Positions 37 through 5,698 of a DNA stretch of 10,790 bases are shown in pieces (position 1 is the stretch's first letter; each line of letters starts with the position of its first letter). The stretch covers positions 1 to 10,790 of the forward strand of contig JAJYPQ010000102.1 in NCBI GenBank assembly GCA_021795255.1, in the 5' to 3' direction. The notes below the pieces were generated by a model. It was not told the origin of the DNA and did no database searches. It saw only the letters and a program-made list of their open reading frames with translations. Made by a program: the position numbers and the translations under genes. Origin of the DNA: Pseudomonadota bacterium (GTDB taxonomy: Bacteria; Pseudomonadota; Gammaproteobacteria; Acidiferrobacterales; Acidiferrobacteraceae).

Positions 37-66
37 AAGGCGGCGTCTCTAAGTACTTGTTTTAAT

Positions 67-113
67 TGGCGTCCCCAAGGGGATTCGAACCCCTGTTACC
101 GCCGTGAAAGGGC
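67..113 (-). other. tRNA-Glu(UUC) 3' fragment, probable integration attachment core
   Basis: Read on the minus strand, this stretch is the 3' part of a tRNA-Glu: anticodon loop CTTTCAC (anticodon TTC, 106-108), anticodon stem 3' strand GGCGG, T arm AGGGGTTCGAATCCCCT (78-94), 3' acceptor strand, and an encoded CCA (67-69). Beyond position 113 the tRNA sequence stops. The 5' anticodon strand, D arm and 5' acceptor strand are absent, so this is not a functional tRNA gene. Tyrosine-recombinase elements commonly integrate into tRNA 3' halves and carry such a copy as their att core. The orientation puts element DNA on the right. A possible arm site (AGGTGGACA) also lies to the left, which would fit an attP of a circular form or tandem elements. 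Confidence 0.8.
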
Positions 114-3169: not shown

Positions 3170-3799
3170 CTATAGCGGTCGGTTTTCGCTGCGGCCCGTT
3201 CGTGCCATCCATGTAAGGTACTCAACACCAATATTGGTTATGTGATAGACATCGCCGGTCACGGTAACCAGCGACTTCGTCAGAAGAAAGGTCATATACT
3301 GATCAAATGACCAGCTATCTAGATCGGGCCGAAACATTTGGCGCACATGCTCGAAATGCGCGACAACCATTGGCTTACTTTGGCCCTGTCCGGTGACCTC
3401 ATTTAATCTTTTCATGAGAAATATTTGGCTGCCAAAAATAAGATTATGTACTTGCTCGAACTCCAACAGGATTTGCGTGGCTGCCAAATGTTTAATGAGA
3501 ACCTTGACAGTATCTCCTTCTATTTCAAGGCCAAGATCCTTTAGAAACGATTTGATCCGCCCTTCGAGATCGCGCAGAACAATCGAATCACCAATAGAAA
3601 GCAATAGTTCTTGTACCGCTTCAGTTTTGTGCTGTTCTCTTTGGGATTCTGGCGCTGGAGACGTTTTGACGCCACTTTTGTCTATCGATGTTATCCGCGA
3701 TATAAGGGCGGCGAGCTGAGTTCGAAACAAAAGCATAAAGCTCAGGACAGTAAAAAGGAAAATGACCGGCCAAATGGCCTCCCTTACTATACTTACCAT
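3170..3799 (-). CDS. Membrane-anchored protein of unknown function
   Basis: A 209-residue protein I do not recognise. A single hydrophobic segment at about residues 9-27 (IWPVIFLFTVLSFMLLFRT) anchors it in the inner membrane, probably with the rest cytoplasmic. A juxtamembrane Ser/Pro linker (about 40-55) leads to a helical domain (about 60-165). The C-terminal part contains YHITNIGVEYLTWM (about 185-200), which looks like the end of a winged-helix fold. The ATG has GAGAGG about five bases upstream and starts 31 bp after the GYQP gene, so it is the last gene of the cargo operon. Lower GC than the backbone supports separate origin. A regulatory or effector part in the module is possible but unproven. 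Confidence 0.7.
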   Translation of the reverse strand: MVSIVREAIWPVIFLFTVLSFMLLFRTQLAALISRITSIDKSGVKTSPAPESQREQHKTEAVQELLLSIGDSIVLRDLEGRIKSFLKDLGLEIEGDTVKVLIKHLAATQILLEFEQVHNLIFGSQIFLMKRLNEVTGQGQSKPMVVAHFEHVRQMFRPDLDSWSFDQYMTFLLTKSLVTVTGDVYHITNIGVEYLTWMARTGRSENRPL

Positions 3800-3830
3800 A
3801 ACCGCCTCTCAAGATTTCAATGGCATGCGA

Positions 3831-3992
3831 TCATGGCTTCTTCGGGGGTGGCTTGACGGATTTTGCTTGGCTGGTAGGAGGCTGATATCCGCCCCTTTCC
3901 TCATGGCCTTTAGGCCCGTTCTCGGGCTTTGGTTGATAGCCCTTTTTGAGTGGTTGGTAACCATCATTGGCCATCGGCTTTTTGTCTGTCAT
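3831..3992 (-). CDS. 53-residue GYQP-repeat small protein
   Basis: A short ORF that is easily missed. It encodes 53 residues with three GYQP motifs (residues 11-14, 18-21 and 35-38) in a Lys/Pro/Gly-rich, probably disordered chain ending in KPPPKKP. No membrane segment or cysteine is present. The start ATG (3990-3992) has GGAG six bases upstream. The gene overlaps the last 29 bases of the DUF6338 gene in another frame, a sign of tight translational coupling. The repeat pattern, good RBS and operon position argue that it is real. My impression is that similar short repeat proteins occur beside DUF6338 genes elsewhere, but I cannot verify this. Role unknown; an adaptor binding its membrane neighbours is one guess. 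Confidence 0.7.
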   Translation of the reverse strand: MTDKKPMANDGYQPLKKGYQPKPENGPKGHEERGGYQPPTSQAKSVKPPPKKP

Positions 3993-4593
3993 TTTCTTCT
4001 CCATCCATCACGTTAAAAAACTCTACAGTCACTATATTGGACGCCAGGATCAGGATTCCGGCGCTGTCAACTCTGGGCCTCTCAAACCCGCCGTCGGCAT
4101 TCAATTCCCATGTTTCTTGAAGATAGAGCTGCTCGGGCGCTGGCGCGCTTGATGCGAAGGATCGCGAGTCATAAAGCCCGCCAATGCGGCTACCATCTTT
4201 GAGCGAAGCTCTTATCCAGAAGCGCCGTCTTTGGCTGAATACATAATCCCATGGTTTACCGGTAGGGTGCGGTAGGATAGCCTGGAAACGTTTTGTCGTG
4301 CGCAGTAGACCATATAGCCAGACCCAGAGCACGGGGGCGATTAAGAGCACAAAAACACAGAATGCTACATAAGCATCGGGGTATGACACCCAAACTCCGT
4401 GCGTTTCAATTTCGTAGATCGGCCACAGCAACAGCGCGTAGTTGATCGAACTGTAGGCAATCGCATCAATAAGTTGCTGCCCAGAATGCTTGCTAGCACC
4501 GGGAAACAGTAGCTCATAGGTTTTCAGACTTATGAAGCCTGGTACTACGAACGCGATAAACAGCGCGAGTTTATTGCCTTCCCAGATGTCCAT
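3964..4593 (-). CDS. DUF6338 family membrane protein
   Basis: A 209-residue protein fitting DUF6338. It has an N-terminal hydrophobic helix (about 8-25, ending VVPGF), a second at about 48-60, a third at about 74-97, and then a cytoplasmic domain with the family-like blocks HPTGKPWDYVFS (109-120), LKDGSRIGGLYDSRSFAS (131-148), LYLQETWEL (156-164) and GILI (179-182). The ATG at 4593 has GAGG six to seven bases upstream. An upstream in-frame ATG (4689) would add 32 Arg-rich residues without family character and is rejected. The biochemical function of DUF6338 is unknown to me; such genes turn up in accessory regions. It follows the AbiGi-like gene after 109 bp and overlaps the GYQP gene. Confidence 0.8.
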   Translation of the reverse strand: MDIWEGNKLALFIAFVVPGFISLKTYELLFPGASKHSGQQLIDAIAYSSINYALLLWPIYEIETHGVWVSYPDAYVAFCVFVLLIAPVLWVWLYGLLRTTKRFQAILPHPTGKPWDYVFSQRRRFWIRASLKDGSRIGGLYDSRSFASSAPAPEQLYLQETWELNADGGFERPRVDSAGILILASNIVTVEFFNVMDGEENDRQKADGQ

Positions 4594-4702
4594 TGATTTC
4601 CTCACAAGACATCGCAGTCGGCTCGCTTTCGGCCAAAGAAATAGTCTTGTCTTAAGCGGGATCCTACCCGCACATGCGAAGCACAGCAATCGCTAAAGGT
4701 AT
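4594..4702 (-). promoter_or_regulatory. Intergenic gap with small hairpin and weak promoter-like boxes
   Basis: On the minus strand GCGGG and CCCGC form a short hairpin (within 4657-4672). TTGCTG, 17 bp, TAGGAT resembles a weak sigma-70 promoter. The DUF6338 gene could therefore have its own promoter besides read-through from the AbiGi-like gene. Support is modest. Confidence 0.25.
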
Positions 4703-5698
4703 TTAGAGGTAGGGGCGTACCGCGACCTTGTTGCCTACGATTGCGCATACCCGCTGAATGGCGTACTCAGGGACGAATATCGCCTCGATCTGCTCGAAGA
4801 AATTCCAATCTGGCGCGGGCTCGTACACGAGCGCCAAATCTGACCGCTGTTGTTGAATACCCTCTACGATGAGTTTGTGGGTCCAGAAGTGACGGTCGAT
4901 ATTCTGTAACTTGCTAATCTCGGGCGTTGATAGGTTGCGGCCCACCGGCCGTCCATTGAGATTAATGTCACCGGCGATGAGACGCCATTCCCTCTGGCGG
5001 TAATAGCCGAGTTCTTCGTCAGTGCGTGTATTATCGGTCGGATAGAACATATTCAGAAAGACATTAAGGACAGCGATACTCTGATTGAATGGAATATTGT
5101 TGAAACCAACAAACTGGAGAACATCACGAACGCTAGAAGCGGGAATTGTATATTGAGCAGCGATATTACCCGCGTGGTCTGTGTTCTTCAGGATAAGCTC
5201 GTAGTTTGGAGAGACGGAGTGCTTGTATTTCTTAGCTGCTAACACCGGATCGCTTTCTTCCTTTAACCCCTCTAATTGACGCAAGACGTATCGGGTATGA
5301 TATGCACCACGGACACAAAATGTGCTTATCTGGCTGAGGGCACTAACATCGATTCCTTGTGGAACATAGATGACGGGGGTCGCTCCGACACTGCGTAGGG
5401 TGGCGATATCAAACGACAGGGCGATCGGACCAAATGTTGCTCCGTGTGTTGGCAGATCCGCTAAAGACAACTCTGTGAAGCACGTTCGACGCTGAAGAAG
5501 CGAAAGGTGTTCGTCGGGAGTACCGCTCAGCGTACTTACATTCCACTCTACGAGTTCTGGTGCAAGTATTAATCCGCATTCCTTCATAAAAGAAAGAATA
5601 CGGAGGCCGCGTTCTAAAGTGTCATGTTGGGATTCATTCGCCTTTGGTCGCGGGAAGCTGTGAAAAAATCGCCGGTCATACACGGAATCCCTGGTCAT
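4703..5698 (-). CDS. AbiGi-like abortive infection protein
   Basis: A 331-residue soluble protein whose pattern resembles the AbiGi family (named for lactococcal abortive infection system AbiG). The N-terminal block is DRRFFHSF (8-15), followed by RTCFTELSLADLPTHGATFG (71-90), ALSFDIATLRSVGATPVIYV (93-112), and near the end YYRQREWRLI (232-241) and IEAIFVPEYAI (304-314). The F-x-[DE]-L/I, H, Y/FG, PV-Y and xREWR elements in this order are what I associate with AbiGi. The ATG at 5698 has AAGGA six bases upstream; ATG 5770 lies inside the upstream gene and lacks such support. Known AbiG consists of AbiGi plus AbiGii; no AbiGii-like nucleotidyltransferase is seen here, so the DUF6338, GYQP and membrane proteins may take its place. 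Family call is moderate, role inferred. Confidence 0.6.
   Translation of the reverse strand: MTRDSVYDRRFFHSFPRPKANESQHDTLERGLRILSFMKECGLILAPELVEWNVSTLSGTPDEHLSLLQRRTCFTELSLADLPTHGATFGPIALSFDIATLRSVGATPVIYVPQGIDVSALSQISTFCVRGAYHTRYVLRQLEGLKEESDPVLAAKKYKHSVSPNYELILKNTDHAGNIAAQYTIPASSVRDVLQFVGFNNIPFNQSIAVLNVFLNMFYPTDNTRTDEELGYYRQREWRLIAGDINLNGRPVGRNLSTPEISKLQNIDRHFWTHKLIVEGIQQQRSDLALVYEPAPDWNFFEQIEAIFVPEYAIQRVCAIVGNKVAVRPYL

What the first reader, a model, noticed from the sequence alone, without database searches (positions are those of the whole stretch)
3170..5698. Four-gene AbiGi-like / DUF6338 / GYQP / membrane-protein module as a candidate new defense system
Four minus-strand genes with short gaps or overlaps sit between the replication and transfer modules, in visibly AT-richer DNA than the backbone. 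One resembles AbiGi, the soluble partner of a known abortive infection system, but no AbiGii-like partner is present. Instead there are a DUF6338 membrane protein, a GYQP-repeat peptide and a second membrane-anchored protein. This suggests a membrane-coupled variant in which a soluble sensor or toxin controls a membrane effector. The grouping is seen; anti-phage activity is inference.
Basis: partly seen in the sequence, partly recalled or inferred. Interest (0 to 1): 0.8.

Follow-up and report, generated by a model that had tools for sequence, protein, structure and literature searches.

The report
Membrane Sm-like protein with proline-rich peptide
Two of the four genes, a membrane protein of unknown function (DUF6338) and a tiny proline-rich "GYQP" peptide, form a widely conserved pair found on mobile elements and sometimes beside antiviral genes; the other two genes look like separate neighbours, so the proposed four-gene defence system is not supported.

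Summary
The four minus-strand genes are real and lie in AT-richer DNA; the AbiGi and DUF6338 labels hold.

They are not a conserved unit. Among the 163 loci fetched, 27 carry AbiGi-like, 101 DUF6338 and 2 gene 4, and only the window has any two of them. None of 25 AbiGi-bearing genomes searched has DUF6338 anywhere.

What is conserved is the inner pair. Of 50 close DUF6338 loci, 48 encode a Gly-aromatic-x-Pro peptide just downstream, with protein-level conservation. A diverged DUF6338 class mostly carries a poly-proline peptide instead. The rule weakens in distant relatives: 22 of 80 loci lack a detected peptide.

DUF6338 is modelled as membrane helices plus an Sm/LSm-like domain. The pair occurs in prophages and on plasmids, some beside TIR-caspase, CBASS-type or E1-E2-JAB genes.

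A 2023 paper detected three proline-rich peptides beside DUF6338 in Pseudomonas stutzeri and called them unconserved, possibly de novo genes. If they belong to this family, which I could not verify, that needs revising.

Function is inferred: probably a membrane-acting defence or exclusion module tuned by the peptide.

The parts
3964..4593 (-). DUF6338 protein, 209 aa: membrane helices in the N-terminal half, Sm/LSm-like domain about residues 112-195
3831..3992 (-).
   Evidence: Sequence; same kind of peptide downstream in 48 of 50 close DUF6338 loci; synonymous codon diversity
4703..5698 (-). AbiGi-like protein, 331 aa, with invariant YYRQREWR motif; model weakly resembles DarT/Tpt1 ADP-ribosyltransferase folds; a neighbour, not part of the conserved pair
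3170..3799 (-). Membrane-anchored protein with C-terminal winged-helix-like segment, 209 aa; a neighbour, not part of the conserved pair
   Evidence: HTH_45 17.6 bits, below cut-off 25.5; 336 protein homologues; two plasmid relatives, L007 and L008, without DUF6338 or peptide
61..113 (+). 53-bp stretch that reads like the 3' part of a tRNA gene (label recalled, from no call), possible attachment site of the element
   Evidence: Short blastn matches to many replicons, 87-100% in the rows listed; ARAGORN finds no whole tRNA

Best explanation
The AT-rich cargo of this mobile element holds three units that are separate elsewhere: an AbiGi-like gene, a DUF6338-GYQP pair, and a winged-helix membrane protein. 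The pair is a conserved two-gene module. SHOWN: DUF6338 is followed, often with overlap of its stop codon, by one or more short proline-rich peptides with Gly-aromatic-x-Pro motifs and mostly a basic proline tail, on plasmids, in viral contigs and in genome contigs of several groups. PREDICTED: DUF6338 has membrane helices and an Sm/LSm-like domain. INFERRED: the Sm-like domains assemble at the membrane as Sm proteins do, the peptides bind that domain and hold it inactive or tie it to a sensor, and infection or invasion changes this so that the membrane protein arrests the cell or excludes the invader. The unit serves the element that carries it, alone in prophages or beside other defence systems.
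For: 48 of 50 close loci have the peptide, which is 31 of 33 clusters at 90% identity. Among 14,589 short ORFs, 69 that meet the motif rule lie next to DUF6338 and 9 elsewhere; by eye those 9 lack the repeated pattern. 28 codon spellings among 56 GYQP motifs and 11 among 12 PPPKKP tails show selection on protein. In distant DUF6338 loci 19 of 39 have a GYxP or basic-ended proline-rich peptide, against 53 of 605 control genes. Peptide class tracks DUF6338 class: class I has 47 GYxP and 2 poly-Pro, class II 0 and 9. Sm-like fold. Defence neighbours: L001 and L099 ThsB-TIR and caspase; L096 cyclase and 2TM effector; L002 E2/E1/JAB; L101 annotated CHAT. Three proline-rich small proteins beside DUF6338 are expressed in P. 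stutzeri, 44-114 spectra.
Against: No activity data. PADLOC has no model for the pair. Binding of the peptide to DUF6338 was not tested; no complex was modelled. The DUF6338 model is of moderate confidence (pTM 0.56). 22 of 80 classed DUF6338 loci have no detected peptide, most of them distant, several from the group of the Chloroflexota-titled centre. Defence neighbours were counted in 5 of 15 annotated records fetched (14 plasmids, one phage record; L104 has no annotation) with no random-gene control; in one of the five, L099, the peptide call is doubtful, and in L098, beside an annotated type I restriction gene, none was found. The close loci come from viral and plasmid collections, so the mobile bias is partly sampling. 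The classes and motif rules were set after seeing data and related loci are not independent. In one search the longest ORF was taken as DUF6338 and was wrong at least for L121 and L122.
Confidence: 0.5

Rival explanations
1. One reading: AbiGi-like, DUF6338, GYQP and gene 4 form one defence system in which a soluble AbiGi-like protein controls membrane effectors.
For: Same strand, fairly close spacing, shared AT-richness; closest relatives of three of the genes share a longest-contig length of 4212.
Against: Of 163 other loci none has two of AbiGi-like, DUF6338 and gene 4; 0 of 25 AbiGi-bearing genomes searched have DUF6338; 109-nt gap before DUF6338.
Confidence: 0.08
2. The pair is a toxin-antitoxin-like addiction or stress module: DUF6338 is a membrane toxin and the GYxP peptides are its antitoxin, kept on mobile elements mainly for maintenance rather than defence.
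For: Overlapping or adjacent genes and tandem peptide copies; peptides well detected while DUF6338 was not in P. stutzeri, though membrane fractions were not analysed there; occurrence on plasmids and in viral contigs.
Against: Peptide lies downstream; no toxicity data; defence neighbours in some loci.
Confidence: 0.22
3. The pair is a membrane or RNA-linked housekeeping or stress function (Sm-like domain binding RNA or ligand at the membrane) that mobile elements have picked up.
For: Sm/LSm fold; DUF6338 also in genome contigs of five groups and in the Haloferax volcanii control; three proline-rich neighbours detected in ordinary growth.
Against: Patchy distribution: matches over the cut-off in 7 of 369, 14 of 385, 10 of 201, 2 of 198 and 3 of 199 genomes.
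Confidence: 0.15
4. The AbiGi-like protein works on its own as an ADP-ribosyltransferase-like effector rather than the antitoxin its Pfam name says.
Confidence: 0.3

Closest known systems
DUF6338 with three proline-rich small proteins, Pseudomonas stutzeri ATCC 14405 (PMC10433244; passages read)
   Same: DUF6338 gene in a predicted operon with three short proline-rich proteins under 50 aa, detected by mass spectrometry
   Different: That paper calls them confined to P. stutzeri and possibly de novo genes; here such a peptide is found in 31 of 33 close DUF6338 clusters. The P. stutzeri peptide sequences were not seen, so membership is likely, not verified.
AbiG abortive infection (AbiGi/AbiGii), Lactococcus (PMC3985639; passages read)
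   Same: AbiGi Pfam family match
   Different: No AbiGii match in the window proteins scanned; the membrane pair beside it is unrelated. In that study's E. coli screen only AbiEii of the lactococcal proteins inhibited growth.
CBASS 2TM effectors; ThsB-TIR with caspase (Thoeris-like, name recalled)
   Same: Neighbours of DUF6338 in L096, L001 and L099; a membrane-effector logic would be similar
   Different: DUF6338 matches no PADLOC model and has an Sm-like domain plus a peptide partner
Sm/LSm proteins
   Same: Fold of the C-terminal domain
   Different: Attached to membrane helices; no significant sequence match to solved chains
DarT / Tpt1 ADP-ribosyltransferases
   Same: Weak fold resemblance of AbiGi-like
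   Different: No profile-level homology to DarT

Membership tests
AbiGi (PF10899) | Profile match above curated cut-off | tested here: met
   24.9 bits against 22.4; 38 of 42 relatives match at E <= 1e-3
AbiG system | Adjacent AbiGii partner | tested here: not met
   No AbiGii family reported for any of the ten window proteins scanned
DUF6338 (PF19865) | Profile match above curated cut-off | tested here: met
   140 bits against 26.5
Known anti-phage systems in PADLOC 2.0.0 | Match to a PADLOC model | tested here: not met
   Only a weak hit to WH_III-A, E 0.027, for gene 4
Four-gene AbiGi/DUF6338/GYQP/membrane system | Conserved co-occurrence in other genomes | tested here: not met
   0 of 163 other loci hold two of AbiGi-like, DUF6338 and gene 4; 0 of 25 AbiGi-bearing genomes hold DUF6338
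DUF6338-GYxP pair | Short Gly-aromatic-x-Pro peptide directly downstream of DUF6338 | tested here: met
   Present in the window; 48 of 50 close loci
Sm/LSm fold | Sm-like barrel in the C-terminal domain | tested here: met
DarT-type ADP-ribosyltransferase (for AbiGi-like) | Shared fold | tested here: inconclusive
DarT-type ADP-ribosyltransferase (for AbiGi-like) | Profile-level sequence homology | tested here: not met
   hhalign probability 0.7% against nine DarT proteins
Anti-phage defence | Protection against phage | not testable with these tools
   Needs plating assays

The most novel reading that the evidence does not exclude
DUF6338 and GYxP peptides are an ancient, unnamed two-part immune module: a membrane-anchored Sm-like effector whose state is set by tandem proline-rich micro-proteins, used alone by prophages and plugged into Thoeris-like, CBASS and ubiquitin-like defence loci, with peptide and receptor classes diversifying together.
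Probability: 0.35. Interest if true: 0.78.

Novelty: new variant of a known kind. Interest (0 to 1): 0.55.

Why it matters
It gives a sequence-based partner to a domain of unknown function and to a class of missed micro-proteins, three likely members of which were shown by mass spectrometry to be expressed. It challenges a published reading of those three as possible de novo genes. It points to a small, easily cloned unit carried by prophages and plasmids and sometimes found beside TIR-caspase and CBASS genes, so the question whether it protects its carrier is directly testable. It also warns that gene adjacency in mobile cargo DNA does not make a system, and that AbiGi's label as antitoxin is worth re-examining.

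Tried and rejected
Four-gene system: rejected by co-occurrence. AbiGi-like in viral contigs: 13 pattern matches, none confirmed; in plasmids: none. Gene 4 in viral contigs: none of 28 pattern matches confirmed; in 340 genomes: none, but no positive control. The first DUF6338 scan of viral contigs with the single protein found nothing; the alignment found 44 loci. DUF6338-peptide DNA of L001 in E. coli genomes: no match. L051 DNA in phages: no match. Window backbone against plasmids: only short matches. Fusion of peptide to DUF6338: not seen in the C-terminal tails printed (nine of its 23 loci gave no DUF6338 hit and were not examined). Repeats or transposon ends around the four genes: no direct repeats, three imperfect inverted pairs. 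Promoters and terminators: not above shuffles. The 121-nt leader before DUF6338 folds at z -2.16, not pursued. Rfam: none. The P. stutzeri genome was not in the collections, so its peptides were not compared.

Paper searches: DUF6338 1 paper; GYQP with 'small protein' 0; AbiGi with antitoxin 22, listing seen; AbiGi with ADP-ribosyl 4, listing seen, one of them (PMC4012209) read in passages; caspase/TIR/SLATT/CHAT, Thoeris with caspase-like and AbiGi/DarT, listings only.

Rows dropped: L091 (two pieces below 140 bits) from the 50 close loci. L039 and L136 gave no ORF (39 of 41 counted). L151 and L154 were missing (80 of 82 counted; L052 left out there because its contig ends at DUF6338). L026 and L027 were not given to (25 of 27). 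The motif rule was loosened and tightened between after seeing examples; each count names its call.

Full report
OBSERVATION. Four minus-strand genes lie between 3170 and 5698, in DNA of 0.45-0.52 GC against 0.58-0.65 just left and right. From upstream to downstream they are AbiGi-like (4703-5698), DUF6338 (3964-4593), the GYQP peptide (best start 3992, stop at 3831) and a membrane-anchored protein with a winged-helix-like end (3170-3799). Pfam supports AbiGi (24.9 bits, cut-off 22.4) and DUF6338 (140 bits, cut-off 26.5). Gene 4 has only a sub-threshold HTH_45 hit, and the peptide has none. PADLOC gives only a weak hit for gene 4. The window also holds a MobF relaxase and a 53-bp stretch, matched in many replicons, that reads like a tRNA 3' end (label recalled), so it is probably a conjugative or mobilisable, perhaps integrative, element.

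NOT A FOUR-GENE SYSTEM. An alignment of 42 AbiGi-like proteins (38 of 42 match PF10899) found 27 loci in genomes. None has DUF6338, the peptide or gene 4 in the DNA fetched, up to 6 kb each side and less at contig ends. I gave 25 of these 27 loci to a whole-genome search, and none of those 25 genomes has DUF6338; many are metagenome assemblies by title and their completeness is not told. Over all 163 loci fetched, 27 carry AbiGi-like, 101 carry DUF6338 by a broadened profile and 2 carry gene 4, and only the window has any two of them. In favour of a larger block, the best relatives of AbiGi-like, DUF6338 and gene 4 (91, 89 and 93% identical) each list a longest contig of 4212 bases, which suggests one close relative of the same cargo.

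THE CONSERVED PAIR. Plasmid, phage and viral searches gave DUF6338 loci. Of 50 with more than 140 bits (window, L001-L006 and 43 of 44 viral loci; L091 dropped), 48 encode a short peptide with Gly-aromatic-x-Pro motifs and a proline tail just downstream, one to four frames per locus. The commonest tails are PPPKKP (24 of 69 peptides) and PPPKKR (12 of 69). The two misses are L052, which ends at its contig end, and L089. The 50 loci fall into 33 clusters at 90% identity, 31 with the peptide. In the same DNA 9 of 14,589 short ORFs met the rule away from DUF6338, and by eye they lack the repeated pattern. Among cluster representatives GYQP is written with 28 codon combinations in 56 occurrences and PPPKKP with 11 in 12, so the protein and not the DNA is conserved.

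DISTANT RELATIVES. PF19865 matches above the cut-off were found in 7 of 369, 14 of 385, 10 of 201, 2 of 198 and 3 of 199 genomes of five groups, and in 4 of 6 of one family. Judged by the titles of the centre loci the groups are those of Burkholderia, Kaistia, a Dehalococcoidia bacterium, Pedobacter and an Acidobacteriaceae bacterium. By an automatic rule, 8 of 39 distant loci have a GYxP peptide and 19 of 39 either that or a proline-rich basic-ended peptide; for 605 control genes the figures are 28 and 53. That rule took the longest ORF as DUF6338 and was wrong at least for L121 and L122. By eye, further candidates exist (for instance L037, L039). With a broadened profile 80 of 82 loci could be classed: class I has 47 GYxP, 2 poly-proline and 21 none; class II (EWP motif) has 0 GYxP, 9 poly-proline and 1 none. 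Fisher's test on the 58 peptide-bearing loci gives 5e-9, but loci are related, the classes were defined after looking, and a few GYxP calls (L099, L100) are doubtful.

CONTEXT. In viral contigs the pair often stands alone, facing phage-like genes on the other strand (phage gene labels by eye, no count made). Among 15 annotated records fetched (14 plasmids, one phage record), five have defence-type genes beside DUF6338: ThsB-TIR plus caspase in Proteus penneri next to Tn7-like transposition genes (L001) and in Curtobacterium (L099, peptide doubtful), a cyclase plus 2TM effector in Mesorhizobium (L096), an E2/E1/JAB protein with a metallohydrolase in Acinetobacter ursingii (L002), and an annotated CHAT gene in Streptomyces (L101; no Pfam or PADLOC hit for that protein). 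L098 adds an annotated type I restriction gene, but no peptide was found there. L104 has no annotation. No random-gene control was run for this point.

LITERATURE. The single library paper naming DUF6338 (passages read) reports three proline-rich proteins under 50 aa in a predicted operon with DUF6338 in P. stutzeri ATCC 14405, well detected (44-114 spectra), while DUF6338 itself was not detected and membrane fractions were not analysed. It calls the three not conserved beyond P. stutzeri and possibly de novo genes. The architecture matches the triple peptides of L049 and L053. Short length and divergent linkers would explain why they seemed unconserved (inference).

MECHANISM. Shown: pairing, protein-level conservation, occurrence on mobile DNA, defence neighbours in some loci. 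Predicted: membrane anchoring and Sm-like domain. Inferred: peptide binding to that domain, control of a membrane effector, and defence or exclusion as the outcome. Confidence in the pair as the real unit is high (about 0.9); confidence in the defence mechanism is about one half or less.

Noticed in passing
window 4703-5698: AbiGi-like proteins carry an invariant YYRQREWR motif and their model weakly resembles ADP-ribosyltransferase folds, at odds with the Pfam label 'antitoxin'.
   Followed up: partly
window 61-113: 53-bp stretch that reads like a tRNA 3' end, matching many plasmid records; possible attachment site of an integrative element.
   Followed up: partly
L001 5001-7221 and L099 1496-3639: DUF6338 lies next to a ThsB-type TIR gene and a caspase gene in two phyla, in opposite orientation to them in the second.
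   Followed up: partly
L077 7413-9064: Viral contig with two further uncharacterised genes downstream of the pair, the second starting with a hydrophobic stretch.
   Followed up: no
window 4590-4710: Leader before DUF6338 folds somewhat better than shuffles, z -2.16.
   Followed up: no
window 3170-3799: Gene 4 family has 336 database homologues; of the 120 listed only one has a precomputed domain. In L008 it follows a RelE-type toxin and an HTH gene.
   Followed up: no
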